Shown here: positions 51,255 through 57,338 of the stretch, piece by piece
How positions within the stretch are numbered: the first letter of the stretch is position 1
How the letters are laid out: each line of letters opens with the position of its first letter
Assembly: GCF_009754915.1 (NCBI RefSeq)
Contig: NZ_WPIK01000002.1
Coordinates: 248,001-312,000 of the forward strand
Length of the DNA stretch: 64,000 nucleotides
DNA from: Mucilaginibacter arboris
GTDB taxonomy: Bacteria; Bacteroidota; Bacteroidia; Sphingobacteriales; Sphingobacteriaceae
Direction: 5' to 3'
Program-made: the position numbers and the translations under genes
The notes under the pieces: model-generated
The model's input: the letters and a program-made list of their open reading frames with translations, nothing else
Database searches by the model: none
Told to the model about the DNA's origin: nothing

Positions 51255-51274
51255 GATAAGGCAAAGGTATCCCT

Positions 51275-51426
51275 AATTTTTTGCCTGTAAAAGAAGTATT
51301 GCTTGTAATTTTTTAAGAAAGTCGGAAAGTCCGGAAGTCGGAAAAGCGTACACGGGCTTATTCTTGACTTTCGGACTTTCCTAACTCTCGGACTTTTCAG
51401 ACTACTTCTTTTATCAGGCAAAAATT
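51275..51426. repeat. Outward-facing repeat pair with co-varying core change
   Basis: The arm at 51275-51299 ends GTAAAAGAAGTAT and the arm at 51403-51426 starts TACTTCTTTTATCAGGC. Both share the G-to-A change (AAGTA/TACTT) and the GCC/GGC inner change. Between them lies another imperfect inverted repeat built on GTCGGAAAGTCC and GGACTTTCC. The right part overlaps the last codons of the next gene. Confidence 0.75.
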
Positions 51427-53006
51427 GGAACTATTACCTGGATTGATTTTTTCAGGTCGTTTTCGAACGTTACTTCGTATTCGCGTTTTGCAACTACTCC
51501 GCCATGCCGGCCTGATACATCATAGCCAATTTCGTCAGAAATTGGTTTTACATTTTCTGTTTTGTATTCGGCTAATTTTTTCGCAAACAATTGTTCCGTA
51601 TCCTGGCGTGTTTCCAACGCATGCCCGTTCCGGTTGGGGTCAATAGGCATTTGTTTAGGTTTATTGCTGAGGTTAAGCACCTTTTTAACCGAATTATGGA
51701 AATTGGTAATCGTGCCATCATTATCAATGGTAACCCTTACTACGCCATTGTCTGTATTTACAACAGGTACGCCATTAATCACCTGCCTAAATTCAATAGT
51801 TGTATCTGTTACATATTCTTCATCCAGTTTACCGCTGCCTTTGGTACTGCCGCCGCAGGTTTTCCCTAATCTAACAGCCTGAAATTGCAGTTCGGTATCT
51901 TTGCCTAACTGTTCGCGCATGTATTGCTCGGCAGTTTGCCGTGCCTTGTTTTGGTCTAATTGCCGACGGTTCTCAAAATTTACGTTAGCCAGTTTTGCAT
52001 TAAAATGACCCTGCTGGTTAATCGTGATCTTTTTTTCACCTTCATCCAAAACATACGTGCCTTCTTTAGAGATGCCAAAACCATCAATTGCTTTGCCCGA
52101 AAACCCTAATTGGTCTGCCAGCCTGCCTACTTCAGCATGGTCAACTTTAAATGGGGCCAGTTCTGCAACCAGCATTTCTTTAGGGAGCATTTTATTATGT
52201 GAAGCTACAGAACTTGCTACCAGCCATCTCCATTGGTACCAGTTGCGTGCAACTGTGCCCCATTGAAACAGCTTTTCGTTCATTACAATATTAGTTGCTT
52301 CGGCTTGAGTAGCGCCGGATGCAACTACAGTAGGCGTTTGGTTGTGGGAAATATCCCAGCTTCCATACAACCAGGAAGTTGAAAAAGATTGCCCGGCTTT
52401 GTAATGGTTCCAGAAGTTGGAGCCGTAATTTGGATTGTCGAAACTGGTGGTTTCAAAACCGAACAACATTCTGAAACCTGGGTTGCTATCATCATTCCAC
52501 CAGGTGGTAATAGGTGTTATTCCGCCAAAAACACGGCAGGAAAAGCAGGTCGACCAAAAAATATAACGCAAACGCTGGTTGCCCATCAGCATGTTATGGT
52601 TGCTGGAAATCCAGGTTTCATTATTCCATTTGCCACCGGTAGGCGCCTGGAAAATACCGTTTGCAGTCATGGCACCGTGTCCGGAATGATAAAAAACATC
52701 AACCGCATCAATACCATAATAGTTTTGCCAATGGTCATTAGGTTCTTCGTAAAGCCAGGTTTGTACAGCACCATCTTTCATGTAATAATTGGCTGTGTAC
52801 CAGTTATACAGATAATTGTAAAAGCCTTGTGCATCGGCATGTGTAGCATGTAAATCTGAGTTATGGTTTCCCAGCGAACCAGAGAAATCCTGAATGCTGC
52901 AAAGGCCTAACAGATTGTTTGGTGCAGCAGCCTGAGGAATATTTTTGTCTGTTGAATTATTATCGAAAGGAGGGTTTATCGCCTTGTCTTCTAATACGTT
53001 TTTCAT
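51414..53006 (-). CDS. Protein with His-Gly/Cys caspase-fold-like domain and FTP/PepSY-like C-terminus (unassigned)
   Basis: This 530-residue protein has no clear signal peptide. Residues about 35-260 resemble the DUF6345-type domain: VDVFYHSGHG (H107, H110) and IFWSTCFSC (C154, C157), the order and spacing of His and Cys recalling clan CD cysteine peptidases. Residues about 290-450 contain a fungalysin/thermolysin-propeptide-like segment (QGHFNAKLANVNF, then FRQVINGVPVVNTDNGVVRVTIDNDG). It is encoded after a papain-like peptidase and its inhibitor. Peptidase activity is a guess; it may be a regulator of the neighbour. Confidence 0.65.
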   Translation of the reverse strand: MKNVLEDKAINPPFDNNSTDKNIPQAAAPNNLLGLCSIQDFSGSLGNHNSDLHATHADAQGFYNYLYNWYTANYYMKDGAVQTWLYEEPNDHWQNYYGIDAVDVFYHSGHGAMTANGIFQAPTGGKWNNETWISSNHNMLMGNQRLRYIFWSTCFSCRVFGGITPITTWWNDDSNPGFRMLFGFETTSFDNPNYGSNFWNHYKAGQSFSTSWLYGSWDISHNQTPTVVASGATQAEATNIVMNEKLFQWGTVARNWYQWRWLVASSVASHNKMLPKEMLVAELAPFKVDHAEVGRLADQLGFSGKAIDGFGISKEGTYVLDEGEKKITINQQGHFNAKLANVNFENRRQLDQNKARQTAEQYMREQLGKDTELQFQAVRLGKTCGGSTKGSGKLDEEYVTDTTIEFRQVINGVPVVNTDNGVVRVTIDNDGTITNFHNSVKKVLNLSNKPKQMPIDPNRNGHALETRQDTEQLFAKKLAEYKTENVKPISDEIGYDVSGRHGGVVAKREYEVTFENDLKKSIQVIVPIFA

Positions 53007-53074
53007 GTTATTTGATTTAACTTGGTTTTTTTTAAGCAGATAAGCAAGCGTATTTTGTGGAATAAGCCTAACCG

Positions 53075-53099
53075 GATTTTATAGCGGTAAAAGAAGCAT
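53075..53099. repeat. ATGCTTCTTTTA-family solitary right arm
   Basis: The arm ends AGCGGTAAAAGAAGCAT and abuts the stop codon of the inhibitor gene (minus strand). Confidence 0.8.
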
Positions 53100-53393
53100 T
53101 CAGCTTACAATTACAGAGAAGATGAGTGTTGATATGGCCGTCGTATTTTGTTCCCAGCTTCTTTTCTGGCTAAATATCAGCTTTGCTGTTCCTGGTTTTA
53201 GCCCTTGTACCCGAAATTTTTCAGCTAAACTTTCTCCGGCTTTTAACCTGCCGGAGGGGGCGTCAGTTCTTTCTTCGGAAACTGATATAATATCTTTCCG
53301 GTCAACCTGGTAACTCCACATATAACCTGCAGATGCCAGGCTTTTTAACGAGACGATGCTGCTTTTACCTGCATTTAATCTGATGGTTTCCAT
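53100..53393 (-). CDS. Chagasin-type (I42) cysteine-peptidase inhibitor
   Basis: This 97-residue protein fits the chagasin Ig-like fold. Three inhibitor loops are recognisable: SLASAGYMWSY in place of the NPTTGYxW loop, a Gly-rich middle loop, and KRSWE in place of RPWE. It has no signal peptide, like the peptidase encoded 9 bp upstream, so it would work in the same compartment and could block or chaperone that enzyme. The short length and divergence of the first loop leave some doubt. Confidence 0.75.
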   Translation of the reverse strand: METIRLNAGKSSIVSLKSLASAGYMWSYQVDRKDIISVSEERTDAPSGRLKAGESLAEKFRVQGLKPGTAKLIFSQKRSWEQNTTAISTLIFSVIVS

Positions 53394-53402
53394 TTTTAGT
53401 GT

Positions 53403-54170
53403 TTAAACCAGCCGGATGGTCCAGAAGTCATCGCATAAACTACTGTTGGTAATATAAGCGTAAGGCATATAAAAATAACCTTTAATGCCCCAGGTTGTAT
53501 TCCAGGAGTTGCGGATGATAAAAGCGTTTTTGCTATCATCATAACCAACAGCCATTACTGCATGGCCACCTACGGTTTTTTCTCCTTGCTGCGGCATTGG
53601 CATTATACCCGTTTGTGCCACTTGCTGGGTCATAAAGCTTTCGTAAACGGTAAAACCAAAAACAAACGGAAAGCCTTCTGCCAGGCAGCCTTTTAATTGG
53701 GTAAGCGAGTTTACCAGCCGTTGGTAGCTTTTGATCTGTGACTTTTTGGCCTCATCATAACATTTTTGCGATGGCTTATTAGTAAATTTACTAATATCAT
53801 ACGGCCAGTCTTTTTCAGGGCAAACACCTTGGTTGTTCATGGTTTTAATCCCATCCCGGATGTAAGCGCCGCTATCAGAATTAACCGTGTTAATTAAAAC
53901 ACGCTCGTTGTAATAGATAAACAGGCGCGAAGGCATGTAATCCGGTTTCGTCTCTTTTTTCAGGTCAAATTCGTAAGCGCCTGCTAAGCTGTTTGCGGTA
54001 CAGCTGCCTAAATGTCCCTGGTCGTAAACTGGTGGGCATTGACTGCGTAAATCAACTGTTGTAGGCAATTGTTGCATTACGGCCATAGGTGCTGCGTACA
54101 TAAAGTCGCGTTGGTCGGGCAGGTCGGGTAACCAACCGAAAGTGTAAGGGGTGTTTTGTTGATTGTCCAT
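53403..54170 (-). CDS. Papain-family (C1A) cysteine peptidase without signal or prodomain
   Basis: This 255-residue protein carries the papain triad: C57 in DQGHLGSCTANS, H203 in GGHAVMAVGY and N221 in IRNSWNTTWGIKGYFYMPY. The oxyanion Gln is in PPVYDQGH. The N-terminus starts with LPDLPDQRDF and has neither signal peptide nor inhibitory propeptide, so the mature enzyme would be made directly in the cytoplasm or leave by another route. The inhibitor gene 9 bp downstream would explain how the cell tolerates it. Confidence 0.93.
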   Translation of the reverse strand: MDNQQNTPYTFGWLPDLPDQRDFMYAAPMAVMQQLPTTVDLRSQCPPVYDQGHLGSCTANSLAGAYEFDLKKETKPDYMPSRLFIYYNERVLINTVNSDSGAYIRDGIKTMNNQGVCPEKDWPYDISKFTNKPSQKCYDEAKKSQIKSYQRLVNSLTQLKGCLAEGFPFVFGFTVYESFMTQQVAQTGIMPMPQQGEKTVGGHAVMAVGYDDSKNAFIIRNSWNTTWGIKGYFYMPYAYITNSSLCDDFWTIRLV

Positions 54171-54408: not shown

Positions 54409-56061
54409 TTACTGTACTATCGCATCAAAAGCACTGTTCAATATTTTACCGTTACGTTTCATTTGTACCCAAATCCTATACTTGCCAGCACTTGGAAAAG
54501 CATAAGGAAAAGTAACCATAGCATCCATTTTGCTGTGCTGATTGTTCTGCATATCCATGACGGGCATAGCCGCGGCGAGATATTTATTGCGATCGCTTTC
54601 GCTCATCTGCCTGATTTTAATGATTTCTCTGTCAATACTATCGCGAAAACGTGCAGCATCAGGAGTCGCCGGAGGTTTTTCACTTCCCTTCATCCGGCCT
54701 TCAATAATTTCTTGCGAAGCCATCGAAAAAGTACCAACCGGATGCAAATGCATATAAACGGAACCATCATATTTTAGCACAACCGCATGTCCCATCATGC
54801 CCATATAAGGTTCGAGTTTTACTGCTGCGCCGGATGGATCATGAATAGCAAAAGTAAGCGGATAAACTTTGTTAGCCTCAAAAGGAACATTAGCGGCATG
54901 TTCCCAAACAGCAGAAGAGCCGTCTGCCAGTTTCATGCTTTCTCCGGGGCTTCCGCATAACAATACTGTTTTTCCTGCGAAATTATTTACGGTTTGATTG
55001 CTGGTGTTTGAAATTACATAAGTATCATCAGGATCAGGAAAGAAAGCTGAATATAGTTTTGCCGATGCTGTTTTTACCAGTGTTTTTTGAGGGACATCTA
55101 AAGTATCCGTGATAGTTTCGGTAAAACCATTCCAGCGTACAACATCAGCAAAAACCAGATAACGGCCTTCGGGAAGATCAGGCAGATCAACAAAAAAGTT
55201 CAGGCTGTCTTTTCGGAATGGATGCAGGTGTGCAAATACATCTAATGAGTTTTCCCTCACCATAAATAAATGCATCAGTTTACCATGGTCCGGCACGATA
55301 AAACTCATGGATTTATTATACGGTTTGAGTGAATTAGAATCGATCTGAAAATGTAAAATCTGATGCTGGTCGTAATTTAAAATGCTAGACTTGGCTTGCG
55401 GCGCGAAGTACAAATTTCTTCGATAATTTCTGCTCCAGCTGTTCCACCAGGAAGAGCCGCCGTAAAGAATTAAAGCCAATACTAATAAACTAACTGCAAA
55501 GCCGGTAATTTTTTTTCTTTGCAGATGAGGTAAGTTATTTGTTCCAGGTTTAAGCAAACCATCGCTTACACTTGCGCCAATTATGGTAGCCATTAATATA
55601 ACCAGCAGTAAACCTAAACCAACTAAAATCCAGCCAAGAGATTTTGGCATAGTACGTTGGGCAGTAGAAACCGCCATTACCGGAACAACTGCTGTACCTT
55701 TTCCAAGCACTCCATTTACCGTAATTTTCATACTCGATGTTCCGGTCCACATCAGCCAAACTGTTGCCTGATATTGTCCCGGCGTTCCTTTTACCGGTAA
55801 TGCTTCATCTGCTTTTGGCGAACCTTTATCGCCTGCGTACCAGTAAACGGGCGATACCAATACTGTTTTTACCTGCTGATTTTCAGTATAAATAGAAACG
55901 CTGGCTGTTCCGGGAATAACATCAGGCGGATTAATATTCACCATAATGTTGTACGGGCCGGCTTTTCCTTCGTAAACCACTCCGGGGCTTCCAACATGAG
56001 CAAAAGTGATTGGGCTGATTAGCATCAGCATAAAAAAGAATATTGCTTTTAAAGCTTTCAT
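54409..56061 (-). CDS. Exported membrane protein with two HLHP metal-type motifs (unassigned)
   Basis: This 550-residue protein starts with a signal peptide (residues 1-21, ending TFAH), has a YtkA/FixH-like beta domain (about 25-130), two membrane helices (about 143-165 and 186-203), and two C-terminal beta modules each ending in HLHP (278-281 and 438-441), the second preceded by MGMMGHAVV. Such His/Met patterns are seen in copper-handling proteins. ATG at 56061 is chosen over one at 56091: it gives a 4-bp ATGA overlap with the upstream gene and a clean signal peptide. No firm family name is known to me. Confidence 0.7.
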   Translation of the reverse strand: MKALKAIFFFMLMLISPITFAHVGSPGVVYEGKAGPYNIMVNINPPDVIPGTASVSIYTENQQVKTVLVSPVYWYAGDKGSPKADEALPVKGTPGQYQATVWLMWTGTSSMKITVNGVLGKGTAVVPVMAVSTAQRTMPKSLGWILVGLGLLLVILMATIIGASVSDGLLKPGTNNLPHLQRKKITGFAVSLLVLALILYGGSSWWNSWSRNYRRNLYFAPQAKSSILNYDQHQILHFQIDSNSLKPYNKSMSFIVPDHGKLMHLFMVRENSLDVFAHLHPFRKDSLNFFVDLPDLPEGRYLVFADVVRWNGFTETITDTLDVPQKTLVKTASAKLYSAFFPDPDDTYVISNTSNQTVNNFAGKTVLLCGSPGESMKLADGSSAVWEHAANVPFEANKVYPLTFAIHDPSGAAVKLEPYMGMMGHAVVLKYDGSVYMHLHPVGTFSMASQEIIEGRMKGSEKPPATPDAARFRDSIDREIIKIRQMSESDRNKYLAAAMPVMDMQNNQHSKMDAMVTFPYAFPSAGKYRIWVQMKRNGKILNSAFDAIVQ

Positions 56062-57254
56062 CTTTGTACTTTTTTCATCCAGCTTCCCCATTTATAACCG
56101 ACAAAAGCTGAAATAACAGCAAAAACAGCAGCAATTAATAACCCTTTTATCAGGCTAAAACCAGAATCTACTTGTTCCGGGCGAAAAGCATAACGAAAAG
56201 CATAATCAGGATCGCTGCCAAAATACCAGGAAGAACCGCCAAAAAAGCTATTACGCGCAACGGTTGAAGTTAAAAGGAATGTGCCGAAATACCATTGAAC
56301 CACAAAAAATACGGCTAAAAACAGTATAGCAGAATATGCTGCTTTTACCCATCCTTTTTTATTAGGAAACTTATAAAAAATCCAATCGATAGCTAATGCA
56401 GGAAAAACGAGCAATAGCGGAAAATTAAAGGCTTGATAATGGTCGATGTGATTTAAAACCGGGCCAAGCCGAGGGTAAGCATGGAAAATTGGTAATATCC
56501 AAAGCATCAGCAATAAAATTGACATGTAAACAGCAGCAGTAGCTGTTGCGGCCCATTTCATGTTAGATGCACGTGTAACCATTATCAGGAAAAGGGGAAA
56601 TATCACGCTGCTTATCTGATAAAATAAAGCTCTATGCATTTGGTGCTTGCTTAAATAATCAGAAAGTACGGTAAAAAATCCCGCTACCAGCACTCCTGCA
56701 GCAATGGCAAAAAGCCAATGATGTATTTTTGCCGAATCATTGATATTTAAATGATTTGTGCTGGAAGCAACAGCTACTAAGGTGCCAAATTGAATCATGA
56801 TCGCACCCAGCGCCAATAAAGTATGCGGAGGAGATAAAATAGTAACATCAAGCCCGTAAGTATTATGCCACCAATCGTCAAAAGGAGCGGAGGTAAGCAT
56901 GGCAATGGCGCCCCAAATACAAAAAAGCGCACCTAATGAGCCATGGAAAATTCCCCAGAACTTTACAGCTTGTGATTTTTCTTCCGCAGGACTAAAAAAG
57001 GATGTTCTTAAAACCTGGTAACCCGAAAATACGCCGGAAACTACCGCGCCAACATAAATAACCATGTGCGGAGGAGCAAAAAGTCCGTCACGGCCAATGC
57101 TGGTATGCCAGGAAATATCCCAAATTACACCGACAATAATGCAAAGTGAAGAAAAAACGCAGGCATAAACGTAAGGCTGGACTGTAGAAACTACTTTTGC
57201 AGCTTGTGATTTTTCTGCTGTAAAACTTGGGTGGAGATACAATTCAGATTCCAT
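56058..57254 (-). CDS. Polytopic membrane protein with duplicated W-H...PPH motif (unassigned)
   Basis: This 398-residue inner-membrane protein has about ten hydrophobic helices. A motif is repeated: WDISWHTSIG...PPH (H50, PPH 61-63) and DDWWHNTYGLD...PPH (H130, PPH 142-144), both at helix starts, suggesting paired metal or heme ligands. ATG at 57254 is preferred over a TTG at 57272. Its stop overlaps the next start by 4 bp, so the two are translationally coupled and likely form one complex. I do not recognise a named family. Confidence 0.7.
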   Translation of the reverse strand: MESELYLHPSFTAEKSQAAKVVSTVQPYVYACVFSSLCIIVGVIWDISWHTSIGRDGLFAPPHMVIYVGAVVSGVFSGYQVLRTSFFSPAEEKSQAVKFWGIFHGSLGALFCIWGAIAMLTSAPFDDWWHNTYGLDVTILSPPHTLLALGAIMIQFGTLVAVASSTNHLNINDSAKIHHWLFAIAAGVLVAGFFTVLSDYLSKHQMHRALFYQISSVIFPLFLIMVTRASNMKWAATATAAVYMSILLLMLWILPIFHAYPRLGPVLNHIDHYQAFNFPLLLVFPALAIDWIFYKFPNKKGWVKAAYSAILFLAVFFVVQWYFGTFLLTSTVARNSFFGGSSWYFGSDPDYAFRYAFRPEQVDSGFSLIKGLLIAAVFAVISAFVGYKWGSWMKKVQR

Positions 57255-57338
57255 AAAGCGGTTGTTTGTCAATAGGTTAAAAATATTGAATTAGAATGAA
57301 TTTTAAAAAATAATTTTATTTGCCTTTCAACTTTTTCT

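What the first reader, a model, noticed from the sequence alone, without database searches (positions are those of the whole stretch)
51414..54170. Peptidase-inhibitor cassette: papain-like enzyme, chagasin-type protein and a His-Gly/Cys protein
Three minus-strand genes lie together: a C1A peptidase with complete C57-H203-N221 triad but no signal or prodomain, an I42-type inhibitor 9 bp later, and a 530-residue protein with an H-S-G-H-G and S-T-C-F-S-C pair like clan CD peptidases plus a propeptide-like C-terminal part. An enzyme made without prodomain beside its own inhibitor looks like a toxin/immunity or stress system. The third protein could be a second peptidase, an activator or a target. 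I do not know a described system with this set.
Basis: partly seen in the sequence, partly recalled or inferred. Interest (0 to 1): 0.65.

Follow-up and report, generated by a model that had tools for sequence, protein, structure and literature searches.

The report
Papain–inhibitor gene pair plus caspase-like protein
A bacterial papain-like protease sits next to the gene for its probable inhibitor, a pairing that turns out to be widespread, and both are followed by a protein filed as 'unknown function' that has the caspase/gingipain fold and appears to have joined such a pair at least twice independently.

Summary
Observation confirmed. Three minus-strand genes: a xylellain-type C1A peptidase (C57/H203/N221), a leaderless chagasin-family (I42) inhibitor 9 bp later, and a 530-aa protein. 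'No prodomain' needs correction: there is no I29 prodomain, but the ~34-residue N-terminus matches xylellain's. The peptidase–inhibitor pair is widely conserved: 21 of 44 Bacteroidota genomes with I42 have C1 next to it, nearly always C1 first, including the sister species (13-bp gap). Probably a self-protection pair like staphopain–staphostatin, built from unrelated families. The third protein is DUF6345 fused to a PepSY/YycH/FTP-like half. Its N-domain models as a clan CD (caspase/gingipain/CHAT) fold; H110 and C154 are invariant in the 25 domains aligned. It is an add-on: the sister species has peptidase–inhibitor–MFS without it. The three-gene order recurs in one Chlorobiaceae genome, where peptidase (26% identical), inhibitor (22%) and DUF6345 (38%) are all from other subclades, so the association probably arose twice. 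Six of the eight other genomes with the full-length protein encode I42; in families with measured background (7–30%) it was 4 of 4 (nominal P about 5e-4). Inhibition, activity and any cascade or toxin/immunity role are untested.

The parts
53403..54170 (-). C1A papain-like cysteine peptidase, xylellain type, 255 aa; C57 (54000-54002), H203 (53562-53564), N221 (53508-53510); N-terminal xylellain-like segment residues 1-34
   Evidence: Pfam PF00112 2e-22; PDB 3ois E 7e-74 over residues 10-254
53100..53393 (-). Chagasin-family (I42) inhibitor, 97 aa, no leader; loop motifs degenerate: SLASAGY for NPTTGY, KRSWE for RPW
51414..53006 (-). 530-aa DUF6345 protein with PepSY/YycH/FTP-like C-terminal half
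52221..52925 (-). DUF6345 domain (about residues 28-262), clan CD-like fold; H110 codon 52677-52679, C154 codon 52545-52547
51417..52220 (-). C-terminal half (about residues 263-530), PepSY/YpeB/YycH/YycI/FTP-like
51324..51394 (-). strong hairpin in the DUF6345-MFS interval, possible end of the transcript
   Evidence: fold of 51255-51413, z -7.0; inverted repeat 51324-51339/51366-51381; not recognised as a terminator

Best explanation
The first two genes form a self-protection pair. An intracellular or non-classically exported xylellain-type papain-like peptidase is made together with a leaderless I42 inhibitor, which would occupy its active-site cleft through the three chagasin loops, so that the enzyme works only when and where it escapes the inhibitor; the enzyme's own N-terminal segment would be a second brake. 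The third gene encodes a leaderless clan CD-like cysteine peptidase (dyad H110/C154) with a PepSY/FTP-like C-terminal half that probably restrains or chaperones it. It is an optional add-on recruited 3' of such pairs at least twice, most simply as an upstream peptidase that releases the papain-like enzyme by cleaving the inhibitor or the N-terminal segment, or as a parallel effector. Shown here: the gene pair, its conservation, the domain folds (as models) and conserved residues, the insertion and the recurrence. Inferred: inhibition, autoinhibition, the direction of any cascade, and the biological role.
For: C1 adjacent to I42 in 21 of 44 I42-bearing genomes of a 395-genome Bacteroidota sample, usually with short gaps, also in Chitinophagaceae and the sister species. 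Clan CD: VIA Z 12.6 (rmsd 3.4, 177 aligned) to SAVED-CHAT, 11.9 metacaspase, 11.4 RgpB, 10.7 legumain over residues 28-250; H110, C154 and W169 invariant in 25. C-half: Z 12.3 (rmsd 5.1, 230 aligned) to 5coz, 10.8 YpeB, 9.2 YycH, 9.0 YycI, 8.1 Aspergillus metalloproteinase entry. Insertion: sister species has I42 then MFS with matching flanks. Recurrence in G554 with different subclades. Co-occurrence with I42 in 7 of 9 genomes against 15/201, 12/147 and 26/86 background. Precedent for inhibitors co-transcribed with papain-like peptidases: PMC3462683.
Against: Only two of nine genomes have all three genes together; Brocadia and Terriglobia carry DUF6345 without I42, and Paracoccus copies have lost the Cys. 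In Ferruginibacter and Thalassocella the I42 is not beside a C1 gene. In Chlorobiaceae the I42 usually has a leader while the C1 has none, so the two might not meet in the cytosol. The window's I42 loop motifs are degenerate. The clan CD model is of medium confidence (mean pLDDT 67.6, Foldseek best E 5e-4). No interaction or activity was tested.
Confidence: 0.6

Rival explanations
1. The peptidase-I42 pair is real, but DUF6345 is an unrelated neighbour that inserted downstream by chance; the Chlorobiaceae recurrence is coincidence.
For: Rare association (2 of 9 genomes); the sister species lacks it; other full-length DUF6345 genes sit beside unrelated genes such as bhcR/purM in Paracoccus or radical-SAM genes in Brocadia.
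Against: Same position and orientation in two lineages with different subclades; a direct-neighbour chance of roughly 1 in 2300 per genome; I42 co-occurrence 4 of 4 outside the window in families with known background, P about 5e-4 (small numbers, not corrected for relatedness).
Confidence: 0.35
2. Toxin/immunity or defence module: the peptidase kills or arrests the cell when the inhibitor is lost or cleaved, with DUF6345 as the trigger.
For: Patchy distribution; clan CD peptidases are used in bacterial defence (the best structural match is a SAVED-CHAT filament); on proteobacterial and haloarchaeal plasmids an ImmA/IrrE (CapP-like) protein, in several copies with an I42 domain, lies directly before a C1 peptidase and after a CapH-like HTH.
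Against: No PADLOC match for the three window proteins; no regulator, mobile-element gene or defence gene was recognised among the flanking genes examined; the plasmid module lacks DUF6345 and its peptidases were not compared closely with this one.
Confidence: 0.2
3. Nutritional or housekeeping proteolysis: a peptidase exported without a Sec signal, whose inhibitor guards the cytosol, with no regulatory role.
For: Staphostatins and Spi are thought to guard the cytosol in this way (PMC3462683); xylellain-like enzymes are linked to plant colonisation (PMC12090721).
Against: No export signal on either protein and no secretion gene recognised beside them.
Confidence: 0.25

Closest known systems
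Staphopain-staphostatin and SpeB-Spi operons; Bfp/Bfi and Btp/Bti of Bacteroides (PMC3462683)
   Same: papain-fold peptidase gene beside, and co-transcribed with, a small inhibitor gene; in B. thetaiotaomicron btiA and btiB start 4-5 bp after the peptidase stop codon
   Different: here C1A rather than C47/C10, and an I42 inhibitor rather than a staphostatin-like or propeptide-like one; neither protein has a leader; a clan CD-like gene follows; co-transcription not tested here
Xylellain (Xylella fastidiosa, PDB 3ois)
   Same: closest solved structure of the peptidase, matching over nearly its whole length including the N-terminal segment
   Different: whether an I42 gene lies beside the xylellain gene was not examined; organism differs
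Chagasin / amoebiasin (I42)
   Same: Pfam I42 above cut-off; amoebiasin-2 is the closest PDB sequence
   Different: degenerate inhibitory loops (SLASAGY, KRSWE); chagasin and amoebiasin are eukaryotic
Clan CD peptidases (CHAT, metacaspase, gingipain, legumain)
   Same: fold, and order of the His and Cys after successive strands
   Different: sequence identity about 10%; no assignment to a named family; activity unknown
YpeB/YycH/YycI/YcdB and FTP/PepSY domains
   Same: fold of the C-terminal half
   Different: attached to a clan CD-like domain, at the C-terminus, in a protein without a signal peptide

Membership tests
Peptidase family C1A, xylellain type | papain-fold sequence with Gln/Cys/His/Asn active site | tested here: met
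   PF00112 2e-22, 3ois 7e-74, Q51/C57/H203/N221 invariant
Peptidase family C1A, xylellain type | N-terminal segment aligned with xylellain's | tested here: met
   alignment starts at residue 10; that the segment blocks the active site is recalled from the xylellain literature and was not tested
Inhibitor family I42 | profile match above curated cut-off | tested here: met
   51.3 bits against 27.2
Inhibitor family I42 | three inhibitory loops NPTTG, GxGG, RPW | tested here: inconclusive
   Gly-Tyr and R-x-W-E kept, the rest degenerate
Inhibitor family I42 | inhibits C1 peptidases | not testable with these tools
   needs an enzyme assay
Clan CD cysteine peptidases | caspase-type alpha/beta fold | tested here: met
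   VIA Z 10-12.6 to CHAT, metacaspase, gingipain and legumain; predicted model of medium confidence
Clan CD cysteine peptidases | His-Gly and Cys dyad after successive strands | tested here: met
   strand 104-108 then H110-G111, strand 148-152 then C154; H110 and C154 invariant in 25 sequences
Clan CD cysteine peptidases | peptidase activity | not testable with these tools
   needs an assay
Named clan CD family (C11, C13, C14, C25, C50, C80, CHAT) | membership of one named family | tested here: inconclusive
   no Pfam match to any of them; structural Z values are close to one another
PepSY/FTP-type domain | fold | tested here: met
   the Pfam FTP and DUF4901 matches stay below cut-off
Staphopain-staphostatin type operon | inhibitor gene adjacent on the same strand | tested here: met
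Staphopain-staphostatin type operon | C47 peptidase with I57/I58 inhibitor | tested here: not met
   C1 and I42 families instead
Known anti-phage defence system | PADLOC model match | tested here: not met
   none at E 0.1 for the three window proteins

The most novel reading that the evidence does not exclude
A two-protease cascade inside a bacterium: a caspase-fold enzyme of an unstudied family (DUF6345) destroys a chagasin-type inhibitor, or trims the N-terminal segment, to unleash a papain-like peptidase, giving a protease-based self-killing or stress switch, with plasmid-borne ImmA-I42/C1 modules as a parallel version under CapH/CapP-like control.
Probability: 0.15. Interest if true: 0.8.

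Novelty: new variant of a known kind. Interest (0 to 1): 0.5.

Why it matters
It places DUF6345, a Pfam family of unknown function, in the caspase/gingipain fold class with a testable catalytic dyad; it shows that chagasin-type inhibitors in Bacteroidota are often encoded right after a papain-like peptidase, which gives bacterial I42 proteins a native target to test; and it gives a concrete two-protease hypothesis with simple experiments.

Tried and rejected
PDB sequence search with the DUF6345 protein: nothing. NCBIfam: nothing for DUF6345 or I42. Phage records for DUF6345: none. Literature on DUF6345: no paper in the library; on chagasin with operon, and on I42 with C1 peptidase and ImmA: nothing on this arrangement; most subscription papers are not held. 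The idea that the three-gene set is generally conserved was rejected (2 of 9). Universal matching of leaders between C1 and I42 was rejected (Chlorobiaceae; the leader call there is a simple hydrophobicity rule on mechanically chosen start codons, so some of it may be wrong). Promoter and terminator scans were at chance level. No complex of peptidase and inhibitor could be modelled.

Full report
Pfam gives Peptidase_C1, Inhibitor_I42 and DUF6345 above their cut-offs. The peptidase's closest solved relative is PDB 3ois, the Xylella enzyme xylellain, over residues 10-254, so its N-terminal segment is homologous to xylellain's rather than absent; in xylellain this segment is reported to block the active site (my recollection of the literature; that paper was not held). 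The 97-aa protein keeps the Gly-Tyr and Arg-x-Trp-Glu elements of the chagasin loops, but not the full NPTTG and RPW motifs.

The pair. In 395 Bacteroidota genomes, 44 have an I42 protein and in 21 of these a C1 peptidase gene is adjacent; many of the other I42 proteins begin with lipoprotein or signal-type leaders. Nearly all pairs have C1 first; one Chitinophagaceae locus (L166) has I42 first. In the same-genus relative G027 the peptidase is 85% identical and the inhibitor starts 13 bp later. Co-transcribed small inhibitors are an established theme for papain-fold peptidases in Staphylococcus, Streptococcus and Bacteroides (PMC3462683), so this pair is best read as another case, with different families on both sides. 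The mismatch of leaders in Chlorobiaceae is unexplained.

The third protein. Full-length relatives (DUF6345 plus the C-terminal half) were found in Solitalea, Ferruginibacter, Chlorobiaceae, Candidatus Brocadia, a Terriglobia MAG and a MAG titled Thalassocella, on Paracoccus plasmids, where the Cys is lost, and on one IMG/VR contig. In 25 diverse DUF6345 domains H110, C154 and W169 are invariant and G111 nearly so. The domain model (mean pLDDT 67.6; best over residues 141-260, weak over 1-29, 78-97 and 124-135) matches SAVED-CHAT, metacaspases, gingipains, MALT1, caspases and legumain at VIA Z 10-12.6; Foldseek alone is weaker (best E 5e-4). The strand-His-Gly and strand-Cys order agrees with the description of clan CD in PMC4357240. 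The C-terminal half matches 5coz, YpeB, YycH and YycI, and more weakly metalloproteinase propeptide-type structures. By analogy with clan CD enzymes that inhibit themselves through a C-terminal part, such as legumain (PMC4357240), and with FTP/PepSY propeptides, this half is probably regulatory; that is inference.

Origin of the set. In G027 the MFS gene follows I42 after about 210 bp, and the ends of that interval match the two flanks of the DUF6345 gene in the window, so the gene was gained here or cleanly lost there. The same C1-I42-DUF6345 order occurs in G554, an uncultured Chlorobiaceae MAG. Its C1 is 26%, its I42 22% and its DUF6345 38% identical to the window's; its C1 is 94% identical to a Chlorobiaceae pair where no DUF6345 follows, and its DUF6345 is closest to Brocadia's (74%) while the window's is closest to Ferruginibacter's (57%). 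Two independent associations are therefore likely, though the G554 contig is only 5 kb long, from a fragmented MAG, which calls for care.

Co-occurrence. Seven of the nine genomes with the full-length protein carry I42. Background: 15 of 201 in the window's own family, 12 of 147 in the Ferruginibacter family, 26 of 86 Chlorobiaceae (the 26 counted in the phylum sample). Leaving out the window genome, the genomes in families with a measured background give 4 of 4, nominal P about 5e-4; the numbers are small and relatedness is not corrected for. Seven of the eight other genomes also have a C1 peptidase, but C1 is common.

Verdict. An ordinary kind of peptidase-inhibitor pair in a new family combination, plus a clan CD-like protein of unstudied function that tends to keep company with it. 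A proteolytic switch is possible but unproven. Steps shown: genes, modelled folds, conserved residues, insertion, recurrence. Steps inferred: inhibition, autoinhibition, cascade, role.

Noticed in passing
L190 1983-3959 (Haloarcula marina plasmid NZ_CP100410.1); L209-L216: Recurrent plasmid module: CapH-like HTH, ImmA/IrrE (CapP-like) protein carrying an I42 domain in several copies, then a C1 peptidase and a ~260-aa protein; in most of the proteobacterial copies uracil-DNA glycosylase and a MazG-type pyrophosphohydrolase follow on the other strand, some near dCTP deaminase, a 5-hmdU DNA kinase-type gene or caspase-family genes. No paper found.
   Followed up: partly
L185 5708-7012 (IMG/VR contig): A full-length DUF6345 protein on a viral contig with phage-like genes around it; dyad kept.
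   Followed up: no
L186, L187 (Paracoccus plasmids): DUF6345 proteins in which the Cys is replaced, so probably inactive; one lies beside the bhc cluster regulator gene.
   Followed up: no
L134 3057-5375 and 6961-8538: A CHAT-AAA protein about 1.6 kb from a DUF6345 gene in a Chlorobiaceae genome.
   Followed up: no
window 51255-51413: Very stable hairpin made of GTCCGAAAGTC-type repeats between DUF6345 and the MFS gene; the motif occurs only here in the window.
   Followed up: partly
window 54409-57272: Two overlapping upstream genes (560 and 404 aa) without any Pfam match.
   Followed up: no
control genome Methanosarcina acetivorans (no locus): The only one of 14 control genomes with DUF6345 and with I42; it also has C1. 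Whether they are adjacent was not checked.
   Followed up: no
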